Assembly (NCBI RefSeq): GCF_027587205.1
Contig: NZ_JAPDOD010000023.1
Location: 1-64,000 of the forward strand
Direction: 5' to 3'
Source of the DNA: Solirubrobacter ginsenosidimutans
GTDB lineage: Bacteria; Actinomycetota; Thermoleophilia; Solirubrobacterales; Solirubrobacteraceae
DNA: 64,000 bases
Shown: positions 1,186 to 27,712 of the stretch, in pieces
Layout: every line of letters begins with the position of its first letter
Numbering within the stretch: position 1 is the stretch's first letter
The notes under the pieces: generated by a model
Told to the model about the DNA's origin: nothing
Databases searched by the model: none
What the model saw: the letters and a program-made list of their open reading frames with translations, nothing else
Position numbers and translations under genes: made by a program

Positions 1186-1730
1186 GCGCAAACGCTTGGA
1201 CTTCCCCGCTCGCGCTGCTCGTTGCCTACATCTAGTTCGTCGACGATCGAAGCGTGTCGGGCGACATCCCGACGAGCGGCCGGTCAGCCGGCGCCCGCAT
1301 GACCCACCGGCCTCCCGCGCTGCCCTCACTCAAACCCGATGCCCCGCGGCCGGCTCCCGGCATGCTCGTGCCGCCACTCACGAGTGGACGGCTTCATAGA
1401 CCGAGCGGCCGCACTGCATCACGGAACACCCGATCACCCATCATGTCGCCGACCCGGAGCCACCCCGGATCGCGGACCGAGATAAGGCTGGGCGTCCGCG
1501 CGCACCGCACCCGCACCACCCACCAGGCTCACGCTCCACCGCCGTCGACGCGGTTGACGGCGAAGACGAGCACAGACAAGGAGCGAGAAGGGAGCGGCGC
1601 AGCCAACCGGCCGCTCGCTAGTCCTTTCGCCTGGTTGGAGCAGCGCTTCGTGACATTCGGGTCGTGCCCATGTTGTGGAACAGCGACACTCAGACGAACG
1701 GGCGCTCGGCAGTCCGGCGATGCGACGGGT
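1186..1730. other. No gene recognised (545 bp)
   Basis: Neither strand gives a product I recognise, and the long open frames are GC-rich read-through. Two short palindromes are visible: GTCGGG-N6-CCCGAC at 1257-1274 and CCACTC-AC-GAGTGG at 1374-1387. The stretch separates the sulfatase/DedA block from the ParB-ArdC block. Confidence 0.4.
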
Positions 1731-1796
1731 GTAGGACCGACCCACCCAGAGGGTGGCACGCCTGGCGGCGTGCGGGTGGGTGGGGATCGGTCCTGC
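1731..1796 (+). promoter_or_regulatory. Long imperfect hairpin ahead of the ParB-like gene
   Basis: GTAGGACCGA at 1731-1740 pairs with TCGGTCCTGC at 1787-1796. CCCACCC pairs with GGGTGGG inside it, and GGCACGCC with GGCGTGC at the tip around a TGGC loop. The stem ends 36 bases before the ATG at 1833. It could be a leader structure, a terminator without a U-run, or a centromere-like site for the ParB-like protein; the sequence does not decide between these. Confidence 0.5.
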
Positions 1797-1832
1797 ACCC
1801 GGCGGGGCCACTGAGATCAGAAAGGCCAGACG

Positions 1833-3521
1833 ATGGCTGAGACGATCACCGCCAGCGGGGTTGCGCGTACGATCGCGTTGAGCGCGATCACGGTGCGCGA
1901 GGGTTTCAATCCGCGCCTTCGCTTCGACAACGTCGAGCTTGAGCGGTTGACGCAGTCGATCCGCGAGACGGGTGTGTTGCAGCCGGTGCTGGTGCAGCCG
2001 GCCGAGTGTGAGGGCGAGTTCGAGCTCGTCGACGGCGAGCGCCGCTACCGCGCGGCACACAAGGCGGGCCTCACTGAGATCCCGGCGTTGATCCGCCCGC
2101 GCGAAGCGGAGACGGGCGGATTGGTCGACGCGCTGGCGGCGAACTTCCACAAGGCTCCGCACACGCCGGTCGAGGAGGCCCGTGCGTTCGCGCGGCTGCT
2201 GGAGGCCGGGCTGACGCGCAAGGGCGTCAGCGAGCGCTTGCAGGTCTCGCGCGAGCTGGTGCGCGAGCGGCTGGAGATCCTCGAGCTCGACGAGGCGCTG
2301 CACGCGAGCGTCGACGACGGGACGATCCCGTTGAAGGCGATCCGCACGCTGTGTGGCCTGGCGAAGATCGATCCGGGCCTGCCGGCGGGTGCGCTGCGGC
2401 GGGTGACGAGCGAGCCGGCGGAGTCCTGGCGGCGGCGGGTGTCGTGGGCGGACGTGATCGCCGATCCGATCGGCGCGGTCACGGCGCAGTACGCCAACGA
2501 GCAGCCGGATCTGCCGGCGGGTCTGTTTGACGCTCACGCGGGTTACCCGCTGTCGGCGTTCGGGCTCGACGAGCGCGGCGAGAAGAACCTAGCCGCTCTC
2601 ACGAAGCTCAACCCGGCGTACGCGAACCGCGATGCGGTCACGGTGCGCTTCGGCCGGGACGCGATCGCGGCGGCGGAGAAGCTCCGCGCCGCACACCTCT
2701 CCGAGCGGGGGCACTCGGCGATCATCGTCGGCCAGGAGGTCGCCGACCAGCTCGTGGCCGACCAGCTCAAGCACGCGCTCAAGGACGAGCGGGCCCGCGC
2801 CCGGGTCCGCCGCGAGCAGACGTCCACGAGCACCGCGGGCAACGACGCCGGCGATACCACGCCGGCGGAGAGCGAGGAGCAGGCGCAGGAGCGCCGGCGC
2901 GTAGAACGCGCCGCGGAGCTCGAGGCGCGCGCGACGGCGGTGGCGTTCAACCTCGAGCTCGGGATCGCGGTCGTGAAGGCCTTCGCGAAGGTCAAGCTCG
3001 ACGCGCGCGTGCTGCAGGTGCTCAGCGCGGTCGACTTCAAGGACGACGTGGAAGCGCTGGCGACGCGCGGTGCGCGCTACGGGTTCCCGGGCTGGCCGGT
3101 CGAGGAGACCAAGGGCGACAAGACCAAGACCGTCTACCTGGAGCGCTACCAGGCCGCGGCGAAGGCGCACGAGTACCTCGACGGCGCCCGTGAGCCCGGC
3201 GAGATCGCCGGCCGCTGCCTGGCGCTGGTCGTGATGGCGGTGTTGGCCGACGAGACCTGCCTCGCGCGGTCGAACCGCTCGATGGTCTCGCTCCACGACT
3301 ACCAGCCCTCGACATACGAGATCCCCGGGGCGACGCCGACGGGGCTGCCGTGGCGACGGCGCGTCGTCGAGCTCGCCGAGGACCTCGCCCTCGAACGGCT
3401 TCCCGAGCACCTCACCCAGGCGCTACGCGACCGCCGCGAGCGGGAAGCCGCGCAGAGGGTCGCCGAGGCGGAGGCGCGCGAGAACGCTGCGCCGGCCGAC
3501 GCCCCGTTGGCCGGCGCCTGA
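1833..3521 (+). CDS. ParB/Spo0J-like nuclease-domain protein of the mobile island
   Basis: 562 residues from ATG 1833, preceded by an AAAGG ribosome site. Residues about 15-90 form a ParB N-terminal domain with the GERRYR signature at 68-73 (box II, CTP/DNA-binding in known ParB proteins). An HTH of KorB/Spo0J type follows near residues 125-155 (TRKGVSERLQVSRELVRERL). The C-terminal 400 residues are not part of the core family and include an Arg/Glu-rich linker near 325-360. It is about twice the length of a chromosomal ParB and has no ParA beside it, which suits a plasmid- or ICE-borne regulator or stabiliser rather than the chromosome segregation gene. It is followed at 3597 by ardC. Confidence 0.75.
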   Translation: MAETITASGVARTIALSAITVREGFNPRLRFDNVELERLTQSIRETGVLQPVLVQPAECEGEFELVDGERRYRAAHKAGLTEIPALIRPREAETGGLVDALAANFHKAPHTPVEEARAFARLLEAGLTRKGVSERLQVSRELVRERLEILELDEALHASVDDGTIPLKAIRTLCGLAKIDPGLPAGALRRVTSEPAESWRRRVSWADVIADPIGAVTAQYANEQPDLPAGLFDAHAGYPLSAFGLDERGEKNLAALTKLNPAYANRDAVTVRFGRDAIAAAEKLRAAHLSERGHSAIIVGQEVADQLVADQLKHALKDERARARVRREQTSTSTAGNDAGDTTPAESEEQAQERRRVERAAELEARATAVAFNLELGIAVVKAFAKVKLDARVLQVLSAVDFKDDVEALATRGARYGFPGWPVEETKGDKTKTVYLERYQAAAKAHEYLDGAREPGEIAGRCLALVVMAVLADETCLARSNRSMVSLHDYQPSTYEIPGATPTGLPWRRRVVELAEDLALERLPEHLTQALRDRREREAAQRVAEAEARENAAPADAPLAGA

Positions 3522-3596
3522 TTGAGCTCTCGGGCGGCGGCGTGGTTGCGCCGCGCCGCCGCCCGGCCGTCTTCGACTTCCGAGAGAGGAGTCCGC

Positions 3597-3983
3597 ATGT
3601 CTACTCCGCGCCGCCGGCTGACCGAGGCCGAGCGCACAGAACAGCGCGCCCGCGATCGCGAGCTGACCGTCCGCGCAGTTGAGCAACTGCGCAGCAGCGC
3701 AGGCTGGCAACGATGGCTGCAAGTGCGCGGGCGCACCGGGCTGCGCCGTTACAGCGTCCGCAACCAGCTGCTGATCGCGCTGCAGGACCCGAACGCGTCG
3801 CGCGTGGCCGGGTTCCGCGCCTGGCTGACGCTCGGTTACTGCGTGCGCAAGGGCGAACACGCGCGGGTCCGTGTGTGGGCGCGTTGCGAGCCGTCGCGCA
3901 AGAAGGTGCAGGCGTGGCGCGACGCCGGTGCCATTCCGTCGGAGAAGCCGCGGGCGTTCTACCGCCTAGAGGCGGTTTTCGAC
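3597..3983 (+). pseudogene. ArdC-like anti-restriction protein, N-terminal half (5' part of the split gene)
   Basis: From ATG 3597, after a GAGAGAGGA ribosome site, 129 codons encode the ArdC N-terminal ssDNA-binding domain (VRNQLLIALQDPNASRVAGF, then WLTLGYCVRKGEHARVRVWA and FYRLEAVFD). Homology stops exactly at codon 129 (GAC, 3981-3983), where the inserted element begins; five alien codons and TGA at 4002-4004 follow. The missing half restarts in register at 8382. Joined, the two parts give a 309-residue ArdC, the normal size. ArdC proteins protect incoming single-stranded DNA from restriction during conjugation, so this island has probably lost that function. Confidence 0.85.
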
Positions 3984-3986
3984 ACG

Positions 3987-4002
3987 TTATCTCGTGATGT
4001 GT
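3987..4002 (+). repeat. Left terminal inverted repeat of the element in ardC
   Basis: TTATCTCGTGATGTGT, matching the inward reading of the right end (TTGTCTCGTGATTTGT) at 14 of 16 positions. An 8-bp inverted repeat TTCGACAC (3978-3985) and GTGTCGAA (4008-4015) straddles this end, half from the target and half from the element, as in a recombinase attachment site. Confidence 0.75.
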
Positions 4003-4015
4003 GAAGAGTGTCGAA

Positions 4016-4618
4016 TGGTGCGCTAGCAGGCCTGAGCAGCGAGCCCGTGCCGTGCGCCGCTTCGCGGCGGGGGTGGTCGGTGGTTGCCGGGTTCCCCCCG
4101 TGCTGGCCTGACCGCCTGATCGTCGCATCCTTCGGGAGCGCATTGCGGGCGCCCGCGGCCCGGAGCAAGCGTGCCGATCTCTGAACGAGTGGTGCTCGAC
4201 GAGCACGACTAGCGTCGCTGGCGGCGAACATGGCGTGTTGATGCCGTCGACCAGTTCGCCAGCGACCGTCGGCGAACTCGGTCGCCGCGTCGGCAGCGCC
4301 ATCTCGGCGGTGCCAGCACGTCGCGACTGCCGGGCCCGGGCGGCCAGCTGGTCCGCGACGCCGTGACGAAAGTGCTCGGAATCCACAATATGGATAACTC
4401 TCGAGCAGGTCGCGCGCTGCTTCGTTCAGGCGCGAGAGCGAGAGTGCCGGGTGGCGCGCCAAGCCGTCATCGTGCCGCTCGCATGCCCCGAGAGCGGAAG
4501 CGACCGATCATCCGCTGTGGGTGATGTGTCGACCGATCCGGCACGGTTAGCTGCGGCGAGATCGGTCATCGCCGGGCGCTTCCCGTCGTATGGCCGAAGT
4601 CGATCCGAAGGAGCTGGC
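4016..4618. other. Left arm of the element, no gene recognised
   Basis: About 600 bp between the left inverted repeat and the HAD gene. No frame gives a convincing protein. It carries an operator-like palindrome at 4508-4524 and the ribosome site for the HAD gene. It may hold decayed recombinase sequence, but I could not show that. Confidence 0.4.
4508..4524. promoter_or_regulatory. Operator-like palindrome, third member of the TCATCC family
   Basis: TCATCC, five bases, GGGTGA: one mismatch from the perfect sites at 218 and 339, with identical spacing. It lies 95 bases before the HAD start and so could control the three-gene cargo operon. Confidence 0.4.
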
Positions 4619-5506
4619 GTGACTGAGTCCGTGCTTGCGAGTTGGAGGGAGGGGCCGGTCAAGCAGGCGATCGTGGACTTTGTCGCGTTGGCGACGACGC
4701 CGGGCCCGGGGTTCGTCGCGGTCGCGGACCGGATCGCGACGTTCGATAACGACGGCACGTTGTGGGTCGAGCAGCCGCTGCCGCCGCAGTTTGACTTCGT
4801 GTTCCGGCGCTGGGCGCAGGAGATCAAGCAGGACCCGTCGCTTGCTGAGCAGCAGCCCTATAAGGCGATCATCGCCAGAGACCCGGCGTTCTTTGCGGGC
4901 GTCGCGACCCAGGACCCGGAGGTCGTCGGGGCGCTGCTGGCGGCGTTCGCTCGCACGTGGAAGGGCACGACTCCGGAGGAGTTCGACGCGCAGGTCCGCG
5001 AGTGGCTACAGACCGTCAAGCAGCCGAAGCTCGGCGTGCCCTACATCGAGCTGGTCTACAAGCCGATGCTCGAGCTGCTCGATTTGCTGCGGGCGCACGA
5101 GTTTCGGGTGTTCGTGTGCTCCGGTGGGGGGCGCGACTTCATGCGCGTGTTCGCCGAGGAGACGTGGGGCATCTTCAAGGAGAACGTGATCGGCACCGCA
5201 GCGGAGTACAGATACGCCGACGGCAGGATCGTCCGCGCCGAACACGCCCTCGGGAGCCTGAACGTCGGGCCGGGCAAGCCTGAGCACATCTTCGCGCAGA
5301 CGGGCCGCCTTCCCGCGCTGGCCGGCGGGAACGCCGACGTCGACATCGAGATGCTTGAGGCCGCCCGGTTCTCCGTGCTCGTCAGCCATGACGACGAGGA
5401 GCGCGAGTTCGCCTACACCAGCGGCGGTGAGGCGTCGCTGGCCCGGGCTAAGGAGCTGGGCTGGACCGTCGTCAGCATGAAGGACGACTGGATCACCGTC
5501 TTCTAA
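4619..5506 (+). CDS. HAD-superfamily hydrolase (phosphatase)
   Basis: I start it at GTG 4619 because an AAGGAG site sits six bases upstream; the frame is open further back but without a ribosome site or homology. The 295-residue protein has HAD motif I FDNDGT with nucleophile Asp43 and Asp45, motif II Ser in VCSGGGRDF near 164, a motif III Lys in GPGKPEHI, and an acidic motif IV (GGNADVDIEM) whose usual Asp pair is spaced unusually. The large cap between motifs I and II resembles phosphoserine-phosphatase-like members. The substrate is unknown. It is the first gene of the element's cargo, 14 bases before the 2H phosphoesterase, so co-transcription is likely. Confidence 0.85.
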   Translation: MTESVLASWREGPVKQAIVDFVALATTPGPGFVAVADRIATFDNDGTLWVEQPLPPQFDFVFRRWAQEIKQDPSLAEQQPYKAIIARDPAFFAGVATQDPEVVGALLAAFARTWKGTTPEEFDAQVREWLQTVKQPKLGVPYIELVYKPMLELLDLLRAHEFRVFVCSGGGRDFMRVFAEETWGIFKENVIGTAAEYRYADGRIVRAEHALGSLNVGPGKPEHIFAQTGRLPALAGGNADVDIEMLEAARFSVLVSHDDEEREFAYTSGGEASLARAKELGWTVVSMKDDWITVF

Positions 5507-5520
5507 AGCAGGGGAGCCGC

Positions 5521-6162
5521 ATGAGTGATCTGACCGCGATCGACGTCCTGATCGACCCCGACGAGGCCGCACTTGCGCGCGCCCGCGAAGTCAACGCCCG
5601 GGTGCTGAAGAGCATGCCGGGGTGGGTACTCGACGACACCCACCAACCGCACATCACGACCCTGCAACGCTACGTGCGCACCGGCGACCTCGATCAGGTC
5701 TACGACGCCATCGAGCAGACCGTCGCGGCGACCGATATCGCCGCGCTCTCCTACCAGGCCGTGAGGATCACGCACGCCGACTGGGGGTTCCCCGGCTATG
5801 GACCGACCGTGCTGCTCGTCGACGTCGACTCGCACGTTCTCGCGTTCCAGGCCGCCCTCGTCGCCGCCGTCGCCCCGTTCGTCGAGGCGGGAGGCACCGC
5901 CGCGGCGTTCGTGACCGACCCCGGTGAGACGATCGAACCGACGATCATCGACTGGGTCGAGGCCTACGTCCCCAACCAGATCGGCGAAGGCAAGTACCTG
6001 CCCCACATCACCGTCGGCGTCGCCAAGTTCGACGACCTCAAGATCATCGAGGCCGAGCCCTTCGACGCCTTCGACGTGCACCCCACCAGCATCTCCGTCT
6101 ACCACCTCGGCAACAACGGCACCGCCCGCAAACTCCTCAAGACCTGGCCGCTGACGACCTAG
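5521..6162 (+). CDS. 2H phosphoesterase (2'-5' RNA ligase/cyclic phosphodiesterase superfamily)
   Basis: 213 residues from ATG 5521 after a GGGGAG ribosome site. The two catalytic HxT motifs of the 2H family are visible: His44-Ile-Thr46 (HQPHITTL) and His162-Ile-Thr164 (LPHITVGV), in a duplicated-fold protein of ordinary size. Family members hydrolyse or ligate 2',3'-cyclic or 2'-5' phosphodiester bonds in RNA, tRNA-splicing intermediates or nucleotide second messengers; the substrate cannot be read from the sequence. It sits between a HAD phosphatase and a sulfatase on a mobile element, so a phosphodiester-sulfate ester scavenging role is possible but unproven. Confidence 0.8.
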   Translation: MSDLTAIDVLIDPDEAALARAREVNARVLKSMPGWVLDDTHQPHITTLQRYVRTGDLDQVYDAIEQTVAATDIAALSYQAVRITHADWGFPGYGPTVLLVDVDSHVLAFQAALVAAVAPFVEAGGTAAAFVTDPGETIEPTIIDWVEAYVPNQIGEGKYLPHITVGVAKFDDLKIIEAEPFDAFDVHPTSISVYHLGNNGTARKLLKTWPLTT

Positions 6163-6265
6163 AGGCGACGCGTCGGACCCACGACGCGCTGCTCTTCGAG
6201 GCAGATGGAGCGGTGTCGGCGGCGCGTGCTTCGAGGCGAACGCGGGAGCGCCCAGGTCGCGCCTG

Positions 6266-6282
6266 TCATCCGTTTCGGGCGA
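6266..6282. promoter_or_regulatory. Operator-like palindrome, weakest member of the TCATCC family
   Basis: TCATCC, five bases, GGGCGA: two mismatches from the perfect sites but the same spacing, about 130 bases before the sulfatase start. Taken alone it would be chance; it is listed because of its context. Confidence 0.3.
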
Positions 6283-6412
6283 TGCGTGGTCGCGTTCGGT
6301 CGCGTTGGCTTGGAGCCATGACCGCAACCTTGGCGGGTTGGCAGGACGGCGCCGCGAGGCAGGCAACCTGGGCGAGTCGGTCGATAACCGCGAAGCCGGA
6401 AGAGGGGTCTCG

Positions 6413-7927
6413 ATGGCCACGGACAAACCCAACGTCCTGCTGATCCTTGCCGACGATGTCGGCTGGTTTGACGTCAGCGCGTATCACCGCGGGATCATGG
6501 GCACCCGAACGCCGAACATCGACCGTGTCGCGGCCGAGGGCGCGATGTTCACCGACGCGTACGCGCAGGCGAGTTGCACGGCGGGGCGGGCCGCGTTCAT
6601 CACCGGTCAGATCCCCCTTCGCACGGGCTTGACGACGGTGGGCATGCCGGGCGCCAAGCAGGGCATCTTCGCGGAGGACCCGACGCTCGCCGATCTACTC
6701 AAGCCCGAGGGCTACATGACGGCCCAGCACGGGAAGAACCATCTGGGCGACCGCAACGAGTACCTCCCGACGGTCCACGGCTTCGACGAGTTCTACGGCA
6801 ACCTCTATCACCTCAACGCCGAGGAGGAGCCTGAGCAGCCCGACTACCCGAAGGAGCGGCCGATCTTCCAGAAGCTGTTCGCCCCGCGCGGGGTACTGGA
6901 CTGCCGCGCGAGCGACGTCGACGACCCCACCGAGGACGAGCGTTTCGGGCGCGTGGGCAAGCAGACCATCACCGACACCGGCCCGCTGACGCGTGAGCGG
7001 ATGGAGACGATCGAGGACGACCTGCTGGCGCGCTCGAGGGACTTCATCGACCGCGCGCAGCAGGCCGGCAAGCCGTTTCTGCTGTGGCACAACACGACGC
7101 GCATGCACGTCTGGACGCGCTTGTCGGAACGCTGGAAGGACAAGACCGGGCTCGGCGTCTACGCCGACGGGATGCAGGAGCTCGACTGGGTCGTGGGCGA
7201 ACTGCTCGCCAAACTCGACGACCTCGGAATCGCCGAGAACACCATCGTGATCTTCGCGACCGACAACGGCGCCGAGAAGTTCACCTGGCCCGACGGCGGG
7301 ACCACGCCGTTTCGCGGCGAGAAGGGCCTCGGCTGGGAGGGCGGCTTCCGCGCGCCGTTCACGATCCGCTGGCCGGCCAAGATCCCGGCCGGACAGGTGC
7401 TCAACGGCATCTTCTCGCTCGAAGACGTGGTTCCGACCGTGATGGCGGCGGCCGGCGTCACCGACGTCAAAGAGCGGCTGCTCGACGGCTACCAGGCGGG
7501 CGAGAAGCACTTCCGCGTCCACCTCGACGGCTACAACCAGCTCGCGTATCTCACTGGCGAGAGCGAGGAGTCAGCTCGCCACGAGTTCTTCTACTACGGC
7601 GAGGGTCAGCTGTTCGCCATCCGCTACAACAACTGGAAGGTCCACTTCCAGACCAAGGACGACTGGTTCGCGGGGGCGCTCGTCCGACCCACGGTGCCGC
7701 AGCCGGTCAACCTGCGCAACGATCCGCTCGAGCAACACATGGACGCGCCCTACTACCCGTTGTATGCCGGCGAGAAGCTCTGGACCGTCCTTCCCGCCGC
7801 CGCGATCGTCCAGCAGCACGTGGCCACGTTCGACGCGTTCCCGCCGCGCCAGCCGCCGGCCGATTTCAACCCGCAAGGACTAGTCGAAGCGGTGCTGGCG
7901 GCCGCGGCTCAGCGCCACGGGAACTAG
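6413..7927 (+). CDS. Arylsulfatase-type hydrolase
   Basis: I use ATG 6413, which follows GGAAGAGGGG; the frame is open 36 codons further upstream but without homology. The 504-residue protein starts with NVLLILADDVGWFD (metal Asp14/Asp15). The modifiable Cys55 lies in SCTAGRAAFITG, with Arg59 in place, and HGKNHLG (Lys108, His110) and ATDNGAE follow. The classical motif is C-x-P-x-R; here the Pro is Ala, seen in some sulfatases. Cys55 would need formylglycine-generating enzyme, not found in this window. No signal peptide is evident, so it is probably cytoplasmic. It is the last cargo gene of the element and a paralogue of the fragment at 1-72. Confidence 0.85.
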   Translation: MATDKPNVLLILADDVGWFDVSAYHRGIMGTRTPNIDRVAAEGAMFTDAYAQASCTAGRAAFITGQIPLRTGLTTVGMPGAKQGIFAEDPTLADLLKPEGYMTAQHGKNHLGDRNEYLPTVHGFDEFYGNLYHLNAEEEPEQPDYPKERPIFQKLFAPRGVLDCRASDVDDPTEDERFGRVGKQTITDTGPLTRERMETIEDDLLARSRDFIDRAQQAGKPFLLWHNTTRMHVWTRLSERWKDKTGLGVYADGMQELDWVVGELLAKLDDLGIAENTIVIFATDNGAEKFTWPDGGTTPFRGEKGLGWEGGFRAPFTIRWPAKIPAGQVLNGIFSLEDVVPTVMAAAGVTDVKERLLDGYQAGEKHFRVHLDGYNQLAYLTGESEESARHEFFYYGEGQLFAIRYNNWKVHFQTKDDWFAGALVRPTVPQPVNLRNDPLEQHMDAPYYPLYAGEKLWTVLPAAAIVQQHVATFDAFPPRQPPADFNPQGLVEAVLAAAAQRHGN

Positions 7928-8047
7928 CAGCCGTGACAGCCCACGACGCAGTGCCGCGAGCCGCACCGGACAGGCGACGAGTACCGCAGTCGATCGACAC
8001 CACCTCAACATCCCGCCTCGGATTCCGCGCGATCATCCGTGGCTGAC

Positions 8048-8332
8048 TCACCACGGCCGTCGATCAGCTAAGCATCGTCCAACCGCGCGTCCAACGCACG
8101 GAGAGTGCCGGAACGCGTCGCTCGTGCGTTCAGAAGCGGTAGCGCGGGACGCCAACACGCCGCCGCGTGACGCCAACCAGGACAAGAAGTGCACGAGCCC
8201 CAGGCCGTAGGTCCGCACCGTGTACGAACTCGACCCGCGCACGACCAGCACCTCAAGAAACGCCACCGCCTGATCGCCGCCGTCCAACCGTTCCAGACGG
8301 CCGATCGCATCGCTCGACAGTCCACCCGCCAT
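8048..8332 (-). pseudogene. Tyrosine recombinase remnant (N-terminal SAM-like domain only)
   Basis: Read on the minus strand from ATG 8332, the first 55-60 residues look like the core-binding N-terminus of a phage-type integrase: SSYTVRTYGLGLVHFLSWLA with flanking helices. Homology fades near 8155 and the frame ends at 8048; no catalytic domain (Arg, His-x-x-Arg, Tyr) follows in any frame. It begins only 31 bases inside the right terminal repeat, the typical place for the recombinase gene of such an element. It is probably the element's own decayed mobility gene. Confidence 0.55.
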
Positions 8333-8362
8333 CAGCGGCACCGACCGTACGTGGCTCACCGG

Positions 8363-8378
8363 ACAAATCACGAGACAA
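8363..8378 (-). repeat. Right terminal inverted repeat of the element in ardC
   Basis: On the minus strand TTGTCTCGTGATTTGT, matching the left repeat at 14 of 16 positions in inverted orientation. Three bases (GAC) separate it from the point where ardC resumes. Confidence 0.75.
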
Positions 8379-8381
8379 GAC

Positions 8382-8924
8382 CGTGCCCAGGTCGATCCGT
8401 TGCCGCCTCCGGCCGAGCCGGCGCCGCTGGACGCGCCGATCGCCCCGATCACGGGTGACACGCTCGCGTGGGCGCTGCCCGAACTCACCACGTTCGCCAC
8501 CGTGCTCAGCGTCGAGGTCCTCTGGGAAGCGATGGTGGCGGGGCACGACGGCTGGTACCGGCCGCGTGAGCAACGGATCGCGATCAACACTGCGATGTCG
8601 GTCGATCAGCAGGCCGCGGCGGTGGTGCACGAGCTCGCGCACGCGCTCGTCGACCTCGACCGCCACGGCGAGGACCCGGCGATGGACTACGCGATGGAGG
8701 AGCTGGTGGCCGAGTCGGTCGCGCACGTGGTGTGCGGGTTCGTTGGCCTCGATACCTCGGGCAACTCGATTCCGTATCTCGCGGCGTGGCGCGAGAGCAC
8801 CGCGGCGGACGCGTTTGAGCGTGTCGCTGGGCTCGTCGATCGCCTCGCACGGCGCCTCGAAGACGCGCTCGACCCGTCCGGCGACGAGGCGGTCGGCACG
8901 GCACCGGTGAGCGCTGCGGGGTAG
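8382..8924 (+). pseudogene. ArdC-like anti-restriction protein, C-terminal half (3' part of the split gene)
   Basis: The ardC frame resumes here with RAQVDPLPPP and runs 180 residues to TAG 8924. It contains the zincin-like metallopeptidase core: HELAHAL with the two His ligands and Glu, then the downstream Glu-rich helix EELVAESVAHVV. Continuing codon 129 at 3983 directly into CGT 8382 restores a single uninterrupted ArdC. A TTG at 8400 could in principle start translation but has no good ribosome site, so this half is most likely not expressed as a functional protein. Confidence 0.85.
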
Positions 8925-9101
8925 GCGCATCCGTCCCGGCGTCGGCGTGGGCCGGGGTGTGGGAGTGGGGACCGGGCTTGCTCGCATGCTGCCTCGTCCG
9001 GGCGCAATCCGCCACGCCACCTGCGCCCTGCGGGTGCCCGCTCACAGGTTCGCGGCGCAGGTGGCGCGTGCGTTCGCGCCCTCCCGGGCTTCGGCATCCG
9101 C

Positions 9102-14435: not shown

Positions 14436-16136
14436 ATGGCGTCCATCTCGCGCATCCTTCCAGGCGACAGCCCAGCACTGCGCAAACAGCGTGGCGCGTT
14501 CTTCACCCCGTTCGAAATCGCCGACTTCACCGCTGGCTGGGCCGTCGCCGGCCGCCCGGACGCGAAGGTGCTCGACCCGACGTCAGGCGAGGGCGTGTTC
14601 CTACTAGCAGCCGCCCAGCATCTCGCGCGCGCGGGCGCAGCTCCCGAAGACATGCGCGACCAGCTCTACGGCGTAGACATTCACGCCGACTCGCTACAGG
14701 AGACGCAGGGTTTGCTCCGCGAGGTCGATTCCGAAGCAACACTCATCGATAACGACTTCTTCTCCCTGCCCACACCCGCGCAGCTCGGCTCACCAGTGCC
14801 GTGGGTGGACGCCGTGATCGGCAACCCGCCGTACGTGCGATACCAGGAGCACCGCGGTGAAGCCCGCCGCCGTTCGCTGGCGGCGGCGTTCGCCCAGAAG
14901 GTGCGCCTGTCCGGGCTGGCGTCGTCGTGGGCGGCGTTGCTGGTCCACGCATGCGCCTTCCTCAAGCCTGAAGGCCGGGTGGCGATGGTGCTGCCGGCCG
15001 AACTGCTGACCGTCGGGTACGCCGAGCCGATCCGCCGCTGGCTCGGTGAACGGTTCGCCGCAGTGCACCTCGTGCTGTTTGAGGAACTCCAGTTCGCCGA
15101 CGCCGAAGAGCAGGTCGTCGTCCTCGTCGCGCGCGGCTCCGGGGGATGCAGCGCGCTCGCGCTGCATCAGCTGCGCGACGCTAGCGAACTGGCCACCCAG
15201 CACCTGTTCGACTCCGAGCCGGTCGCCCTGGGCCGGCCGGAGGACAAGTGGACCGACCTGCTGTTGCCCATGCAGCGCCGCAGCCTGTTCCGCAGGATCA
15301 CCGATCGGTCCTTCACCCGCCTCGACAGCTACGGCACACCCGAGCTGGGCACCGTCACCGGCTCGAACGCGTTCTTCACTCTCAACGAAGCCACACGCGC
15401 CGAATATGGTCTGGGCCGCAATCACTTGCAGCGCATCGTGCCCCCAGGCGCACGCCATGTGCCGGGTACCCGGTTCACCGAAGGCCACTGGCAGCAGCTG
15501 CGCGCCGACGGGCAACGGGTCTGGATGCTGCACCCCGCCGCGGACACCCGGCGCCGTGACGGCCTGGCCCGCTACTTGAACGAGGGCGAAGAGCGCCTGG
15601 TTCACGAGGCGTATAAGTGCACGATCCGTGAACCGTGGTGGCGGCCGCCCGCGGTCCGCTCCCCGGACCTGATGTTCACGTACATGAGCCACGTGACGCC
15701 TCGGCTGGTCGCCAACGAGACCGATGCGACGATTGTGAACTCGCTGCATGGCATCACCCTCGGTCCGGATGCCCCAGACATCACCCGTGACGCACTACCG
15801 ATCGTCGCGCTCAACTCGGTAACCATGCTCGGCGCGGAGCTATTTGGCCGGTCCTATGGCGGCGGCATTCTCAAGATGGAGCCGCGGGAGGCCGCCAGCC
15901 TTCCGGTCCCCTCCCCCGACGCGCTTGTCGAGGCGTGGACGCGGCTCGAACCGCACTGGAGCCGCCTCGACGAACTCGTGCGGCACGGCTGCTGGGAGAC
16001 GGCGCTGGCCCACATCGACCGGGCACTGCTGATTGAGACGCTGGAGCTGAGCGCCGCCGAGGTCGCCTCGATGCGGGCCGCCGCGACCCGCCTGCGGGCG
16101 CGGCGCACCCGGACCGCCGCCGCCGACGCGACCTGA
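14436..16136 (+). CDS. N6-adenine DNA methyltransferase of a restriction-modification pair
   Basis: 566 residues from ATG 14436. SAM-binding motif I is DPTSGEGVF (residues 47-55), the acidic motif II region follows at GVDIHADS, and the amino-methyltransferase signature is GNPPYVRY with NPPY at 130-133. This order is that of gamma-type Eco57I/TaqI-like N6-adenine enzymes. The C-terminal half (TGSNAFFTLN, then YKCTIREPWWRPP and LNSVTMLGAELFGRSYGGGI) looks like a target-recognition domain. It ends two bases before the partner gene at 16139, so the two are one operon. It probably methylates the host against the nuclease next door. Confidence 0.85.
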   Translation: MASISRILPGDSPALRKQRGAFFTPFEIADFTAGWAVAGRPDAKVLDPTSGEGVFLLAAAQHLARAGAAPEDMRDQLYGVDIHADSLQETQGLLREVDSEATLIDNDFFSLPTPAQLGSPVPWVDAVIGNPPYVRYQEHRGEARRRSLAAAFAQKVRLSGLASSWAALLVHACAFLKPEGRVAMVLPAELLTVGYAEPIRRWLGERFAAVHLVLFEELQFADAEEQVVVLVARGSGGCSALALHQLRDASELATQHLFDSEPVALGRPEDKWTDLLLPMQRRSLFRRITDRSFTRLDSYGTPELGTVTGSNAFFTLNEATRAEYGLGRNHLQRIVPPGARHVPGTRFTEGHWQQLRADGQRVWMLHPAADTRRRDGLARYLNEGEERLVHEAYKCTIREPWWRPPAVRSPDLMFTYMSHVTPRLVANETDATIVNSLHGITLGPDAPDITRDALPIVALNSVTMLGAELFGRSYGGGILKMEPREAASLPVPSPDALVEAWTRLEPHWSRLDELVRHGCWETALAHIDRALLIETLELSAAEVASMRAAATRLRARRTRTAAADAT

Positions 16137-16138
16137 CG

Positions 16139-17077
16139 ATGGCCGACCAGGACGTCTTCTCCGAGTTCGACGCGTTGCTGCGCTCCGCCGACCTCACCGA
16201 GTCGCCGTGGAAGCAGGGCTCATACATCCCCGAGCTCGACCTGCTGCGCGACCTGCTCAAACTCACCCTCGGCAGCGCTCAACGCTCAGGGCGCATCGCC
16301 AAAGGCCTCGACGCGTGGATCGCGCACGAGCTGCGCCGGGCTGGGTTCCTGCACGACGCGGTCTGGCCCCGTACCCGCCGGCCGCGGATCCTGCCGGCCG
16401 ACCTCGCCGACATCGAAGCGGCGATCGACGAGCTCGTCGCGGCAATGGAAGACGCCGAGGCGACTGGCCCGCGCCTGACACCGGCGCGGGTCCGCCGGGC
16501 GATCCGCAACCTCAACGACAAGCGCCTCGGTGAGAAGGACGCCTACATTCTGGGCGACTTCTACGCCAAGCAAGTCGACGTGGTCATCTCGTCCTGGCGC
16601 CGCGGCCCGGAACTGCTCGTCTCGACCAAGACGATGTTCTCGTCGTACCGCAACAACTTCAAGAACCGCCACGAGGAAGCCGTCGGTGAAGTCAGCACCC
16701 TGCGCCGCAGGCACCCCATGGCCGCCATGGGGTTCGTGTTCCTGGTCCGCAGCAACATCTACGACAACGAAGGCGACTACGGGCTGCTACAGAACATCCT
16801 GACCCGCCTACGGCGGCCCGGCGAGACGTTCGACGCCACGATGCTGCTCGTAGCCGAATGGGACGAAGCCGATCCCGCCGGCACCGTGCGGCCCGTCGAC
16901 CAGCCCGACCCGTCGCTCGACGCCGGCACCTTCTTCGCCGACCTGGTCAAAGCGACCACGGAGCGCACCCCAGCCGGTGAGCACGCCGAAGTCCGCCGCC
17001 GGCGCGAAGGTGAGCCCAAGGGCGGGCTACCCGACATAACTGCCGCCGAGATCGAAGACATCGACGCTGACGACTAA
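16139..17077 (+). CDS. Probable restriction endonuclease partner
   Basis: 312 residues, coupled to the methyltransferase. A helical N-terminus is followed by a stretch compatible with a PD-(D/E)XK core: GDFYAKQVDVVISSWRRGPE, then LLVSTKTMFSSYRNN, with candidate catalytic Asp147 and Lys164 (S-T-K in place of the usual E-x-K). Further strands are at MAAMGFVFLVRS and ATMLLVAEWDEADP. The STK variation makes the assignment structural rather than certain. By position and size it is most likely the cleaving subunit of a type II-like system whose recognition site is unknown. Confidence 0.65.
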   Translation: MADQDVFSEFDALLRSADLTESPWKQGSYIPELDLLRDLLKLTLGSAQRSGRIAKGLDAWIAHELRRAGFLHDAVWPRTRRPRILPADLADIEAAIDELVAAMEDAEATGPRLTPARVRRAIRNLNDKRLGEKDAYILGDFYAKQVDVVISSWRRGPELLVSTKTMFSSYRNNFKNRHEEAVGEVSTLRRRHPMAAMGFVFLVRSNIYDNEGDYGLLQNILTRLRRPGETFDATMLLVAEWDEADPAGTVRPVDQPDPSLDAGTFFADLVKATTERTPAGEHAEVRRRREGEPKGGLPDITAAEIEDIDADD

Positions 17078-17161
17078 GCCGCCGGCCACCCGTTCCGGCA
17101 CTCGGAGCCCGGCGTTCCGCGTCGAGTCTAGTGGTCGGCGACCCGGCTCGCTGGCGTCGGC

Positions 17162-18898
17162 CTAGCCGCGCTCACGCAGGCGCTGACGCGGCGCAGGCCC
17201 TGGTTTGAGCGTGAAGAGAATGTCGCTATTCGGGCGGCGCGCGAGGGCTTTGACGGCCTGCACCACCTGGCGCTCGAGTGGCCGTACGCCCGTGCTTGCT
17301 TTGAAGATGGTCTTTGGATCAAACGGCGCCGCATCGGGGTCGCTCTGCCGCGCTTCCTCGCGGTCGGCGACGTAGAAATTCATCTCGTCGACCACGTAGC
17401 TCACGTAGAACTTGAGCTGCTCGGTGATCTCCTTGGTCTTGCCTGGCAACCAACGCTCCGGGCTCTCAAACAAGAGTTCCCCGACCTCGCTCTGACGGAT
17501 CACGACGGCGGCTAGGTAAGCGAGCGTGAAACGGACGGATGCGAAGCTCGTCTGGAGCTCTGCGCGCAGGTCCCCCCGAGCATTCTCGACTGCTCGGTTG
17601 AGCAGGTACGCCAGGAACAGATTCTCAGCCGTGGCGCGTTTGAAGATCCGGTGGTAGTCCTGATCGAAGAGCTTCAACTTGCGAACTGCCGCCCAGGGCT
17701 CCTTGAGCCAGACTGCGAGAAGCATCTGGGCCGCGAGCTGATTGTCAAGAACAGCCTCTGCGCCGTCCGTTGGCTGTCCGCGGCGGATGTCGTAGAACAG
17801 GTCGTCGCCGAACTTGTCCTTGATCTGTTGCTGCAGATCTCGCTGGACTCGATCATTCGATCGCAGGTCCCGGGTGTTGACCGGGTTCTGGTTGTTGCTT
17901 CGATACGTGATTCGGTCAGCCAGGGCCGCGCGCCCGCCGGTCTCGACGACCTTCACGACGATGTTCAGCGCCGGCGTAATGCTGTCGCGCTCCCGCCAGA
18001 GCGACAGCAGCGACTGGCAACCATTGACGACTCCGACCCCTTCGAGATTTACACCCTCGTCATCGACGATGAGGCGATCGGTCAGCAGCGTTAGCCCATT
18101 GTGGTAGGCCGGGAATGAGGCGTGCTCGTCCGCGCTCTTGATTGTGGCTCTCAACTCGCGGTTGATCTTCGTATTGCCGAGGCCGAGACGGACGTTGAGA
18201 TCGAAGATCGTCAGATTCTCAATTCCCGGCAACCGCACCAGTTCCGTAGCGGGAACCAGCGCGAGCGCCATGCTTGCGGCGCTCGCGAGGGAGGTCTCGA
18301 TTACGCCGCCAACCGGATGAAAGGTCAAATCTGCCGATAGAAGGCCGCTGCGCTGTGTTCGGCGCGCGACGTCAACAAGTCGAGGCCGATCCCAGAGGTC
18401 GATTGTCGGCTGCTTGCCACGAATCGCCTTGAGGTAGTCCTTGGCTGAGGAGTCCCGCGCTGCGTTCGTGACGAACACGAGCCGGACGGTCGGCTCCGCC
18501 GTCTCGAACTTCGCACGCAGGTCGAGACGCGCGATGAGGTTCGCAAGTTCCTCGTTGGGCGACGAGGCGAGCAAGCGATCAATCCCTACCGGTCCGTCGA
18601 AGTACGCCGCGACGCCCATGAAGGACTTGAGGTCAGCGTCTCCCTGCGTCGGCTTCGCCGCCTTTCGATGCTTCGACTGCAGTACGAACAGCTCGTTCGC
18701 GTCCTCGTCGAAGACGATGGCATCGACGCCCTTGTCTCCTCCGCCGTCACAGATTGCGTCCTCGACCTGATCCGGTTCCTCGCGCATCACGTTCTCCAGA
18801 AACCACGCCAGGAGTGCGGTCGACTCCGTCCGGTTGCCGATGTGATGTGGCGCGAGTTGATTCTGGAGAAGCGCGTGGTTGTCGGCTCCGGTCGGCAT
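17162..18898 (-). CDS. AIPR-family phage-resistance protein with an Mrr-like nuclease N-terminus
   Basis: 578 residues from ATG 18898; the frame is open further to 19132 but without homology or ribosome site. Residues 50-80 carry a restriction-like core: GGGDKGVDAIVF with Asp59, then LFVLQSKH with Gln74-x-Lys76. The remainder matches the AIPR (abortive infection phage resistance) domain: NLTIFDLNVRLGLGNTKIN, then VVNGCQSLLSLWRE, ITYRSNNQNPVNTRDLRSND and QAVKALARRPNS. Characterised AIPR proteins give abortive infection, but the trigger is not predictable here. It is transcribed toward the restriction pair and away from the TIR gene, with a 454-bp gap between the two divergent starts. Confidence 0.85.
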   Translation of the reverse strand: MPTGADNHALLQNQLAPHHIGNRTESTALLAWFLENVMREEPDQVEDAICDGGGDKGVDAIVFDEDANELFVLQSKHRKAAKPTQGDADLKSFMGVAAYFDGPVGIDRLLASSPNEELANLIARLDLRAKFETAEPTVRLVFVTNAARDSSAKDYLKAIRGKQPTIDLWDRPRLVDVARRTQRSGLLSADLTFHPVGGVIETSLASAASMALALVPATELVRLPGIENLTIFDLNVRLGLGNTKINRELRATIKSADEHASFPAYHNGLTLLTDRLIVDDEGVNLEGVGVVNGCQSLLSLWRERDSITPALNIVVKVVETGGRAALADRITYRSNNQNPVNTRDLRSNDRVQRDLQQQIKDKFGDDLFYDIRRGQPTDGAEAVLDNQLAAQMLLAVWLKEPWAAVRKLKLFDQDYHRIFKRATAENLFLAYLLNRAVENARGDLRAELQTSFASVRFTLAYLAAVVIRQSEVGELLFESPERWLPGKTKEITEQLKFYVSYVVDEMNFYVADREEARQSDPDAAPFDPKTIFKASTGVRPLERQVVQAVKALARRPNSDILFTLKPGPAPRQRLRERG

Positions 18899-19352
18899 GC
18901 GTTTGAGAGTACTTCGATCACGTCCCCGGGTTCGAACCGCAGGCGGCCAACAAACCGAGGGCGGCGAGCAGCATCCAGCGGTCGCGTTGCAGCGCTGCCA
19001 AAGCTGCGCATGCGCCTTGTGGCATTGACTGTCGGCTCTAAGCCGGGCTCGAGGCGTCTCGAAGCGAGCCGCCTCTGTCAGCCGGCAGGTGTGTTTCGAC
19101 AAGCCGCCATGGGCGTCCCGAGGCTCCGACAAGGCGCCCTTGCGCGACGTTCGCCGCGGCTGGGGCGCGTGACAACGGCTTCGGTAGCCGACCGAGTCGG
19201 TCCTCAGGCGGTTCCGACAAGATCCCGCAGGGCGCTCCCGCCCGAGTGCTCTGCGACAGCCATCCAGCGCTACGCGTTGCGCGCAGGGTTCGCAGTCGCG
19301 GTTCCCTCAGCGTAAGCGCAAGGATCAGGCATGGGCTCTAACGTCAGGTCCT
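18899..19352. other. Divergent control region between the AIPR and TIR genes
   Basis: 454 bp without a recognised gene. Near the AIPR start the minus strand has TACTCT seven bases before ATG 18898 and no Shine-Dalgarno, which would fit a leaderless transcript. The TIR gene also lacks a strong ribosome site. The length leaves room for regulation common to both defence genes. Confidence 0.4.
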
Positions 19353-20921
19353 ATGGCCGAGCCGCTGCTCGAGGAAGTGTTCAAGACGTCAGGGGTTCCG
19401 ACGCACACGTTCGTCGCGCCGAGCGAGTTCCCGCGGCTGCGGGTGGCGTTGCGCACCGCCGGACGAGGCGTGGTCATCGAAGGCCCGTCGGGCATTGGCA
19501 AGACGACTGCGGTGACGCGGGCGCTGGACGAGATCGGCATGACAGGAAGCGCTCAGATCCTCTCGGCTCGCGTGCCGGACAACGTCGAGTACATCGCGGA
19601 GCTACCGCATACGACGGGGTTCGGGGTGGTTGTGGTCGACGACTTCCACGTTCTGCCCCTCGACGTAAAGAAGGCTCTTGCCGACCACTTGAAGGTCCTT
19701 GCTGACGCGGAGGACCCAAGGAGCAAGCTTGTGATCGTCGGGATCAACCGGGCAGGCGATGCGCTCGTCCGCCACGCGCCTGACCTCGCGGCGCGCCTGG
19801 ACGTCCTGCGCTTTGAGGTCGAGCCGCCCGAGAAGCTCGAGCAGGTTGTCCGCCTGGGAGAGACGGCGCTCAACGTCAAGCTGTCCGCCGCAGCACAGAT
19901 CGTCACTGCCGCGCAGGGAAGTTTCTACCTCGTGCAGATGCTTAGCCGCGAGCTGTGCTTGGCCGAAGAACTCACCGAGCGCCAGGACGATCACGTCAAC
20001 GTTACGGCGTCGTACAGCAGCGTCAAGCACCGCGTCATGGAGCAGCAGGAGAGTCGATTCGGCCCCGTCGTCCGCAAGTTCGCGCGCGGACCCCGGTTCC
20101 GGCCCAGCGGTCGCGCGAACTACCTCCTGCTCCTCAAATGGCTCGCCGAGTCCGATCGTTGGGACATTGTGCTGCGCGAAGAGATCGCCCGGCATCCTGA
20201 ACACCGCCGTTCCGTTGGTCAGGTCGTCGACAAGGGCTGGCTGGCCGGGCATGCCGCCGCCGACGACATCGCCGAGATCCTGCACTATGACCCCGATGGC
20301 AACGTCCTCTCGGTCGAGGACCCCCAGCTGGTTTTCTACCTGCGCAACCTTGACTGGCAGCGCTTCCCGCGCGCCCTCGGATTCGAGAACGTCGAGCTCG
20401 AGCACGAGTACGACTTCGCGTTGTCCTTCGCTGGCGAGGACCGGCCGGTGGCCGATGCGCTGCACGAGCTGCTTGACGCGGACGACTACGTAGTTTTCTA
20501 CGACCTCAACGAGCAGGCCCGGATCGTCGGGGAGGACGTCGAGGCGTTTCTGGCACCGATCTATGCCTCTGATAGCCGCTTCGTCATCGCCGTGCTCGGG
20601 CGGAGGTACGGGGAGAAACGCTGGACGATCTTCGAAAGCGAGCAGTTCAAGGAGCGCTTCGACGACGGACATGTCATCCCGATCTGGGACAAGGACGCTC
20701 GGCCAACACGGTTCGACGGGACTCGCAACATTGGCTACCTGACCTTCGACTCGGCCGCCGACCCTCACGATGAAGCGTTGCGCCTGGTGACGGTCATTAA
20801 AGAGAAGCACTCGCAAGCAATGCGCGACACGACCGGCACTCCTCAGATTCAGCTTGATATCGACAGCGCGATCGTGGCCGACGACCCGCCGCCGTCCGCA
20901 CCGGCGCCGGGCGTCGTGTAA
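19353..20921 (+). CDS. P-loop ATPase with C-terminal TIR domain (probable antiphage sensor-effector)
   Basis: 522 residues. The N-terminal half is a STAND/AAA-like ATPase: Walker A GPSGIGKTT at about 44-52 and Walker B VVVVDDFH at about 91-98, then sensor-type helices. A winged-helix-like middle (FGPVVRKFARGPRFRPSGRA) follows. From about 352 a TIR domain begins (EYDFALSFAGEDRPVADALH, then YVVFYDLNEQARIVGEDVEA and RWTIFESEQFKERF); the Glu after WTIF is the likely NADase residue. The TIR is at the C-terminus, unlike plant TIR-NLR receptors. NAD+ depletion on phage sensing is the expected action by analogy. The gene lies divergent from the AIPR gene. Confidence 0.85.
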   Translation: MAEPLLEEVFKTSGVPTHTFVAPSEFPRLRVALRTAGRGVVIEGPSGIGKTTAVTRALDEIGMTGSAQILSARVPDNVEYIAELPHTTGFGVVVVDDFHVLPLDVKKALADHLKVLADAEDPRSKLVIVGINRAGDALVRHAPDLAARLDVLRFEVEPPEKLEQVVRLGETALNVKLSAAAQIVTAAQGSFYLVQMLSRELCLAEELTERQDDHVNVTASYSSVKHRVMEQQESRFGPVVRKFARGPRFRPSGRANYLLLLKWLAESDRWDIVLREEIARHPEHRRSVGQVVDKGWLAGHAAADDIAEILHYDPDGNVLSVEDPQLVFYLRNLDWQRFPRALGFENVELEHEYDFALSFAGEDRPVADALHELLDADDYVVFYDLNEQARIVGEDVEAFLAPIYASDSRFVIAVLGRRYGEKRWTIFESEQFKERFDDGHVIPIWDKDARPTRFDGTRNIGYLTFDSAADPHDEALRLVTVIKEKHSQAMRDTTGTPQIQLDIDSAIVADDPPPSAPAPGVV

Positions 20922-21016
20922 CGAGCGCCGTCGCCGCTGAGGGCACGAGGGGACCGTGGCGCTGGCCGGCCGCGGTGGACGTCGCGAGCGCTCGCGGAAC
21001 CCACCGGGCCGCCTCT

Positions 21017-21051
21017 CCGACTCCCGATAACTTCCCCATATCGGGAGTCGG
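21017..21051. repeat. 13-bp perfect inverted repeat with a 9-bp centre beside the recombinase gene
   Basis: CCGACTCCCGATA at 21017-21029 and its exact complement TATCGGGAGTCGG at 21039-21051 flank the 9-base centre ACTTCCCCA. Arms of 11-13 bp around a 6-9 bp centre are the usual layout of a tyrosine-recombinase core site. It lies 32 bp before the recombinase start, so it could be the crossover site, an operator for that gene, or both. Without a U-run it is a poor terminator. Confidence 0.6.
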
Positions 21052-21083
21052 TTCCGTCCTCTCCGCGGCCTAGGGTGGCGGCC

Positions 21084-22097: not shown

Positions 22098-22115
22098 AAG
22101 GCGTCACTTAAGTTT

Positions 22116-22144
22116 TTGACACGGATGCGCGTGTCTGTTAAATC
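22116..22144 (+). promoter_or_regulatory. Sigma-70-type promoter for a leaderless transcript
   Basis: TTGACA at 22116-22121, a 17-base spacer, then TAAATC at 22139-22144. Transcription would start about seven bases later, at or next to the GTG at 22152; there is no Shine-Dalgarno. This is the clearest consensus -35 in the island. Confidence 0.65.
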
Positions 22145-22151
22145 TGTCGGC

Positions 22152-27606: not shown

Positions 27607-27681
27607 CCCCCCTGGAGCGGTTTCCAACGGCCCCAGGCGGCACTCACGCATGATGATGAATTATCCCTCTGACCCTCTGAA

Positions 27682-27697
27682 AAGCCCTGGTGGGCTT
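27682..27697. terminator. Short hairpin between integrase and tRNA-Sec
   Basis: AAGCCC-TGGT-GGGCTT, a 6-bp stem with a 4-base loop. On the minus strand four U residues span the end of the stem and the next two bases, fitting termination of the tRNA-Sec transcript; on the plus strand CGGTTT follows, a weak terminator for the integrase. Confidence 0.5.
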
Positions 27698-27712
27698 CGG
27701 TTTCTCGCGAAG

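What the first reader, a model, noticed from the sequence alone, without database searches (positions are those of the whole stretch)
3984..8381. A cargo-bearing element has split ardC exactly in frame
The two halves of an ArdC gene lie 4.4 kb apart and rejoin codon to codon (GAC 3981-3983 to CGT 8382). The insert has 16-bp terminal inverted repeats, a GAC at both junctions, an unusual cargo (HAD phosphatase, 2H phosphoesterase, sulfatase) and a recombinase remnant at one end. A TTCGACAC/GTGTCGAA repeat straddles the left junction, so the target may have resembled the element's own end. I do not recognise this element family.
Basis: seen in the sequence. Interest (0 to 1): 0.75.

Follow-up and report, generated by a model that had tools for sequence, protein, structure and literature searches.

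The report
Tn554-type cargo transposon inside ardC
A jumping gene of a known class (two cooperating recombinases, as in the transposon Tn554) has cut an anti-restriction gene of a soil bacterium's mobile island exactly in two, has lost its own recombinases and carries three cargo genes; relatives elsewhere sit in the same gene at the same point, so that gene looks like their favoured landing site.

Summary
In all 106 relatives that align to both ArdC halves (of 120 listed) the halves abut with no residue gained or lost; the 4.4-kb insert has real 16-bp inverted repeats. The unrecognised family can be named. The right-end remnant is the first ~60 codons of a short tyrosine recombinase, 83% identical to full-length P0123. 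A relative in a Solirubrobacterales-like genome (L170) has that recombinase plus a long one, the same repeat core, and sits in a different ardC at the same position; a plasmid relative (L171) shows both ends and only these two genes. Both recombinases are homologous to Tn554 TnpA and TnpB. Six of seven read-through recombinases have ardC-like flanks, three of them strongly. 'GAC at both junctions' is probably not a duplication but part of a ~6-bp overlap in which element and target agree; whether the strict Tn554 hexanucleotide rule applies is unsettled, because L170 and L171 fit it imperfectly. The window copy is a non-autonomous derivative carrying HAD, 2H and sulfatase genes. The TTCGACAC/GTGTCGAA repeat is at chance level and absent from four other ends. 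New variant of a known kind.

The parts
3597..3983 (+). ardC, N-terminal half (ArdcN domain), interrupted after the D codon
   Evidence: Pfam PF08401 E 1.8e-9; 106 of 106 scorable homologues continue directly with the right half
3981..3986 (+). six bases outside the distal TIR, GACACG: GAC is ardC's D codon, ACG is not ardC (D-T in none of 104 readable homologues)
3987..4002 (+). distal terminal inverted repeat TTATCTCGTGATGTGT
4619..5506 (+). cargo: HAD-superfamily hydrolase (GTG start)
   Evidence: PF12710 E 1.5e-11; 77.6% DNA identity with a Streptomyces plasmid over HAD+2H
5521..6162 (+). cargo: 2H / 2'-5' RNA ligase-like phosphoesterase
   Evidence: PF13563 E 3.6e-4, under the curated cut-off; paired with HAD in L144 and L145
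6413..7927 (+). cargo: arylsulfatase-like sulfatase
   Evidence: PF00884 E 1.4e-49; start checked
8162..8341 (-). remnant of tnpA-like short tyrosine recombinase (first ~60 codons; fainter, gapped similarity on to about 8066)
   Evidence: 83% identity over 60 aa to P0123, E 4e-26 in the insert; 60% over 107 aa to P0124, gapped; PF02899 E 0.018
8363..8378 (-). recombinase-end terminal inverted repeat TTGTCTCGTGATTTGT
8379..8384 (+). six bases outside the recombinase-end TIR, GACCGT: CGT is ardC's R codon; GAC reads as ardC's D codon but may be the element's own
8382..8924 (+). ardC, C-terminal half (zincin-like metallopeptidase domain)
   Evidence: PF18818 E 1.1e-6

Best explanation
The insert is a non-autonomous, cargo-bearing derivative of a Tn554-type site-specific transposon. 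Its relatives encode, at one end and reading inward, a short tyrosine recombinase (TnpA-like, about 380-420 aa) and then a long one (TnpB-like, 661-750 aa), between inverted repeats with the core TTATCTCGTG. One clade, in Solirubrobacterales-like bacteria, lands in ardC, an anti-restriction gene of mobile islands, at the F-D|R position. Mechanism: the two recombinases join the element's circularised ends to the target across a ~6-bp overlap, without deleting target bases, so the gene is split cleanly; the bases next to the TIRs are then partly the target's and partly brought along. The window copy has lost the 3' part of tnpA and all of tnpB, keeps both ends, and could move only if recombinases were supplied from elsewhere. 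Shown by calls: exact split, TIRs, recombinase homology, same position in another ardC, two-recombinase anatomy of relatives. Inferred: circular intermediate, overlap exchange, loss of tnpB, mobility in trans.
For: Exact split in 106 of 106 scorable homologues. Remnant 83% identical to P0123 over 60 aa, full-length relatives. L170: short plus long recombinase, TIR core, and ardC right half directly after the TIR at the same position as in the window. L171: two overlapping recombinase genes between inverted ends 3,610 bp apart, inside a thermonuclease gene whose intact paralogue is L173. Homology to annotated Tn554 TnpA (E 6e-22 and 1e-25) and TnpB (E 5e-15 and 3e-14), with a matching C-terminal cysteine-rich stretch; L170 and L171 TnpB 47% identical over 671 columns. 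ardC-like flanks in 6 of 7 read-through recombinases. Two separate changes of the 'split' label in the ArdC tree.
Against: The window itself holds only ~60 codons of one recombinase and no trace of a second. No TnpC-like gene was found by tblastn in L170 or L171 (best E 4); Tn554 has one. DNA with both ends is in hand for only the window and L171; the other end of L170 is off its contig. Flank matches of P0133, P0124 and P0131 (3e-5 to 8e-4) are not far from the best reversed control (2e-3). Yardstick: unrelated-looking tyrosine integrases also match Tn554 TnpA (the window's own 26410-27606 integrase at 1e-9), so TnpA similarity alone is weak evidence for the family; the long TnpB partner carries the argument.
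Confidence: 0.8

Rival explanations
1. Strict Tn554/SE hexanucleotide rule at the junctions: GACCGT at the recombinase end is wholly the current target's, and GACACG at the distal end is wholly a tag from the former site (possibly another ardC).
For: The rule is described for Tn554 and SEs (PMC10214605 sections 3 and 13; PMC3261861 passages). In the window GACCGT fits D-R (22 of 104 homologues) and D-T fits none of 104.
Against: L170's five nearest intact relatives have A, not D, at the first codon (VFADDQV or VFAQDQV), while L170 has GACCAA; in P0133 the flank back-translates by hand to x-A-T-Q with GA at x, and none of 37 homologues with A in second place has D there. In L171 the paralogue L173 has GGC-ATC, matching distal GGC and recombinase-end ATC but not recombinase-end GGG. 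These fit better if the three bases beside the recombinase-end TIR are the element's own and the exchange point is mid-overlap. In the window itself the two readings cannot be told apart.
Confidence: 0.35
2. A member of another tyrosine-recombinase element class (RIT, SE or GInt) rather than Tn554-type.
For: Those classes also use several tyrosine recombinases; SEs have 13-19-bp imperfect inverted repeats and a 6-bp spacer; RITs have TIRs.
Against: L171 has exactly two recombinase genes between its ends; RIT needs three and SE and GInt four genes. Sequence comparison with RIT, SE or GInt proteins was not done.
Confidence: 0.1
3. A conventional DDE transposon or IS-bounded cargo unit with 16-bp TIRs and a 3-bp target duplication (GAC); the recombinase piece is incidental.
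For: GAC at both junctions of the window.
Against: No transposase domain among the three intact cargo genes or the remnant scanned with Pfam (other small frames of the insert were not scanned); the same TIR core bounds tyrosine recombinase genes in L170 and L171; in L171 the corresponding triplets differ (GGC and GGG).
Confidence: 0.04
4. One ancient ardC insertion inherited and decaying in all these lineages, not recurrent targeting.
For: TnpA and ardC both diverge among the cases; the ardC-flanked TnpAs lie within one clade (support 80/99).
Against: In the ArdC tree of 109 rows the window's and L170's split genes lie in different starred groups with intact neighbours (100/98 with P0002; 100/97 with five intact rows), two changes at least (L170's branch is long). 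Both window halves are open with host-like third-position GC.
Confidence: 0.06

Closest known systems
Tn554 and relatives (Tn558, Tn6188) of Firmicutes
   Same: short TnpA plus long TnpB tyrosine recombinase, read inward from one end; insertion at one position of one gene (radC for Tn554, ardC here); cargo behind the recombinases; no clean target duplication
   Different: no TnpC found; clear 16-bp TIRs (PMC3261861 and PMC3788773 passages say Tn554 and Tn6188 have no terminal repeats, while PMC10214605 calls Tn554's ends imperfect inverted repeats); target is a gene of mobile islands; only 23-26% identity
Actinobacterial Tn554-like pairs without TnpC (PMC3414803 Table 2, e.g. Arthrobacter sp. 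FB24 plasmid 1, L187)
   Same: two overlapping recombinase genes, short then long, no TnpC listed
   Different: 27-31% (TnpA) and 24-28% (TnpB) identity; separate in the TnpA tree, though long branches make deep placement unsure; no 14-bp TIR with at most 1 mismatch found around L187, L188 or L190
Strand-biased circularising integrative elements (SEs)
   Same: imperfect inverted repeats of 13-19 bp and a 6-bp spacer between the ends in the circle
   Different: four conserved genes; L171 has two; no protein comparison done
RIT elements
   Same: tyrosine recombinases between terminal inverted repeats
   Different: three recombinases of 315-410 aa and 34-bp repeats; here two, one of them long

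Membership tests
Tn554-type transposons | short TnpA-type tyrosine recombinase at one end, reading inward | tested here: met
   relatives P0123 and L170, L171; homologous to Tn554 TnpA; in the window only the first ~60 codons remain
Tn554-type transposons | long TnpB-type tyrosine recombinase next to it | tested here: inconclusive
   met in L170 and L171; no trace in the window's insert
Tn554-type transposons | TnpC | tested here: not met
   tblastn of Tn554 TnpC against L170 and L171: best E 4; PMC3414803 notes Tn554-like pairs without TnpC, so it is not required by that usage
Tn554-type transposons | site-specific insertion | tested here: met
   same ardC position in the window and L170 at DNA level; 6 of 7 read-through flanks; inferred from sequence, not from transposition
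Tn554-type transposons | hexanucleotide rule (target 6 bp at one end, former-site 6 bp at the other) | tested here: inconclusive
   window fits; L170 relatives and L171's paralogue L173 fit imperfectly
SE | four genes intA, tfp, intB, srap | tested here: not met
   two annotated genes between the ends of L171; no search with SE proteins
RIT | three tyrosine recombinases in a row | tested here: not met
   two in L171
GInt | four genes ginA-ginD | tested here: not met
   two annotated genes between the ends of L171; no search with GInt proteins
DDE transposon with target duplication | DDE transposase and exact short duplication | tested here: not met
   none among the scanned genes; triplets GGC/GGG differ in L171
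Tn554-type transposons | transposition through recombinase action | not testable with these tools
   needs experiment

The most novel reading that the evidence does not exclude
A clade of TIR-bearing, TnpC-less Tn554-type transposons uses ardC, an anti-restriction gene of mobile islands, as its dedicated docking site: it rides islands between cells while switching off the island's own anti-restriction gene. Some members may bring a replacement ardC (an intact divergent ardC lies beside the recombinases in L170, 417-1367), others, like this one, are recombinase-less cargo carriers. Their exchange point lies in the middle of a 6-bp overlap instead of following the strict Tn554 hexanucleotide rule.
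Probability: 0.5. Interest if true: 0.65.

Novelty: new variant of a known kind. Interest (0 to 1): 0.5.

Why it matters
Tn554's dedicated site is radC; here a related machine appears to have a dedicated site in a gene of horizontally moving islands, a different dispersal strategy with a cost to its vehicle. It also offers a two-gene system (L171, 3,610 bp with both ends and an intact paralogue of its target) in which the unresolved transposition route of Tn554-type elements could be tested without TnpC. PMC10214605 Table 1 lists only Staphylococcus and Enterococcus as hosts of Tn554-related elements, while PMC3414803 had already tabulated actinobacterial ones.

Tried and rejected
That spent the only genome-contig scan. 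The remnant alone found little: no plasmid, no viral locus, weak hits in 16 of 396 and 4 of 151 genomes, of which I looked only at the start of L147. Viral scans with recombinase alignments: none for A1, 7 distant matches for A2, not examined, none for A3. No match at E 1e-40 with A2 in 152 genomes drawn from the class of G788 or 161 from the phylum of G789 (no positive control in either draw). The left end of L170's element was not found. The Streptomyces integrase next to HAD+2H is not a clear relative of the remnant (E 0.057), and TIR-like matches there are below chance (2 seen, 4.3 expected). The TTCGACAC/GTGTCGAA repeat was rejected. One search fetched a stretch that proved unrelated; one search repeated in another mode with the same two records. 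In one search a BLAST of the DUF3072-like neighbours used a wrong frame for L170, so that comparison rests on reading the translations by eye.
Full report
OBSERVATION. Positions 3597-3983 and 8382-8924 are the N-terminal (ArdcN) and metallopeptidase halves of one ArdC. With the right half as query, 332 relatives were found and 120 listed. Of these 120, 106 aligned to both halves, and in all 106 the halves abut without gain or loss of a residue; the other 14 gave no left-half hit. The nearest relative, P0002 (80% identical), is intact at the junction and reads VFDRAQVDAL; the window's halves read ...VFD and RAQVDPL.... The inverted repeats 3987-4002 and 8363-8378 match at 14 of 16 positions, reached by 8 of 20,000 random pairs.

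THE REMNANT. Inside the right TIR, on the minus strand, lie the first ~60 codons of a tyrosine recombinase. Pfam alone is weak (Phage_int_SAM_1, E 0.018). Reading the stretch through its stops and scoring residues 1-90 gave six proteins, 65-86% identical. P0123, 397 aa with integrase and SAM-like domains, is 83% identical over 60 residues. P0123 has 474 relatives at E<=1e-20 among 7,996 scored candidates, 120 listed. No second recombinase was recognisable in the insert.

COMPLETE RELATIVES. One of 232 genomes in the order searched carries a close relative; the same genome, G576, was the only hit among 299 of its class and 396 of its phylum (draws overlap). On this contig (L170) a short recombinase (3568-4824, minus) is followed by a long one (1376-3361, minus; its open frame lacks a counterpart of the first 80 residues of L171's). 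The upstream end carries TTATCTCGTGTTTCGA, directly followed by GACCAAGACCAGGTC..., an ardC right half. The window has ...ACAA|GACCGTGCCCAGGTC... at the same point of an ardC that is 47% identical. In a tree of 109 ArdC right halves the two split genes lie in different starred groups with intact neighbours and need two changes (L170's branch is long). An intact, divergent ardC (417-1367) converges on the long recombinase gene; since the other end is not on the contig, it is open whether it is cargo.

A more distant relative on a Geminicoccaceae plasmid (L171) shows both ends: 5383-5398 and 8977-8992, 3,610 bp, enclosing only two annotated recombinase genes, overlapping by 8 bp. It splits a thermonuclease (SNase) gene; an intact paralogue on another plasmid of the strain (L173) shows the undisturbed site.

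READ-THROUGH EVIDENCE. Because the recombinase frame is open through the TIR, some predicted proteins extend into the flanking gene. Of 122 proteins (P0121-P0242), 7 had long N-terminal extensions by the script's threshold; 6 match the antisense translation of the ardC right halves of the window or L170: P0203 8e-17, P0121 5e-12, P0196 2e-7 (strong), P0133 3e-5, P0124 9e-5 (moderate), P0131 8e-4 (weak). The best match of the same flanks reversed was 2e-3. The seventh, P0190, begins inside the TIR. P0131 and P0133 match about two residues out of register, which a shorter linker in their ardC would explain (inference). All 8 proteins in which the TIR-encoded CLV[IF] can be read have serine before it, that is, GA as the two bases beside the TIR; three of the 8 (P0126, P0183, P0184) have flanks too short to name the gene. 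P0021, an ArdC fragment beginning just beyond the junction, and P0123 share the longest-contig length 22,127, which suggests, without proving, a further split ardC beside a full recombinase.

FAMILY. The recombinases match Tn554 TnpA and TnpB as annotated in OL539428.1: TnpA 24-26% identity, E 6e-22 (P0123) and 1e-25 (L171); TnpB 24%, E 5e-15 (L170) and 3e-14 (L171). As a yardstick, the window's unrelated integrase at 26410-27606 matches Tn554 TnpA at 1e-9, so the long partner and the layout weigh more than TnpA alone. Actinobacterial Tn554-like pairs without TnpC are tabulated in PMC3414803 (section 10 read); one of them, from Arthrobacter sp. FB24 (L187), is 27-31% (TnpA) and 24-28% (TnpB) identical. 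No TnpC-like stretch was found in L170 or L171 (best E 4).

MECHANISM. For Tn554 and SEs a 6-bp exchange is described: the target's 6 bp stay at the intA-side end and 6 bp of the former site go to the other end (PMC10214605 sections 3 and 13 read). PMC3261861 (passages) reports for Tn554 one hexanucleotide from the former site and one from radC; it calls the former-site end 'left' with the figure reversed, so I take no polarity from it. The window fits: GACCGT (D-R) at the recombinase end, GACACG (D-T, in none of 104 readable homologues) at the other. Against the strict rule: L170's five nearest relatives read A-D or A-Q where L170 has GACCAA, D-Q; P0133's flank back-translates by hand to GA-A-T-Q, while none of 37 homologues with A in second place has D before it (SA 35, AA 1, TA 1); and L171's recombinase end has GGGATC where paralogue L173 has GGCATC, its distal end GGCAAG. 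These fit better if the three bases beside the recombinase-end TIR belong to the element and the target resumes at the fourth. In the window element and target agree on GAC, so it cannot decide. I hold the recombinase-mediated, non-duplicating insertion as likely, and the exact exchange point as open. Circle formation and mobility were not testable here.

THIS COPY. The window element keeps both TIRs and ~60 codons of tnpA, and carries HAD, 2H and sulfatase genes with third-position GC of 0.91-0.92, as against 0.84 and 0.88 in the ardC halves. The HAD+2H pair also occurs on two Streptomyces plasmids. What the cargo does for the host is unknown; hydrolysis of phosphorylated and sulfated substrates is the plain guess. 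The split ardC lies between a ParB-like gene upstream and a DUF3072-like gene downstream (E 5.7e-5, under the cut-off); a similar gene follows the split ardC in L170 by eye. Further on lie defence-type genes and an integrase beside tRNA-Sec.

LITERATURE. Full-text searches: ardC with Tn554, no paper; ardC with tyrosine recombinase and insertion, four papers, none on this by title; a broader search, two papers, neither on this by title. The library holds open-licence papers only. PMC3788773, PMC5385486 and PMC8407400: passages only. PMC8138268 and the rest: listings only.

VERDICT. A real, well-formed insertion; a new variant of the Tn554 kind, with ardC as a recurrent target on present evidence.

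Noticed in passing
window 26410-27804: Tyrosine integrase gene (26410-27606) beside tRNA-Sec (27712-27804): the left part of the window looks like an island integrated at tRNA-Sec. No second copy of the tRNA 3' end (18-30 nt, exact) was found in the window.
   Followed up: partly
window 14436-24331: Defence-like block: Type II methyltransferase, AbiU/AIPR-like, a PDC-S59-like ATPase with TIR domain, a tyrosine recombinase, RmrT- and RmrA-like pair.
   Followed up: partly
L170 417-1367: Intact divergent ardC convergent with the long recombinase gene of an ardC-inserted element; possible replacement copy carried as cargo.
   Followed up: partly
window 6413-7927: Sulfatase active-site stretch reads C-T-A-G-R rather than the CxPxR consensus that I recall for sulfatases matured by FGE (the consensus is recalled, not from a call).
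   Followed up: no
L144 6911-9563; L145 7978-9064: HAD plus 2H gene pair on Streptomyces plasmids, in L144 behind an unrelated integrase and in L145 behind an IS630 transposase: the pair seems to travel with mobile elements.
   Followed up: partly
L171 and L173: Thermonuclease (SNase) genes occur in several copies on plasmids of one Geminicoccaceae strain (4 places for one flank in CP122394.1, 1 in CP122395.1), one of them split by a minimal two-recombinase element.
   Followed up: partly
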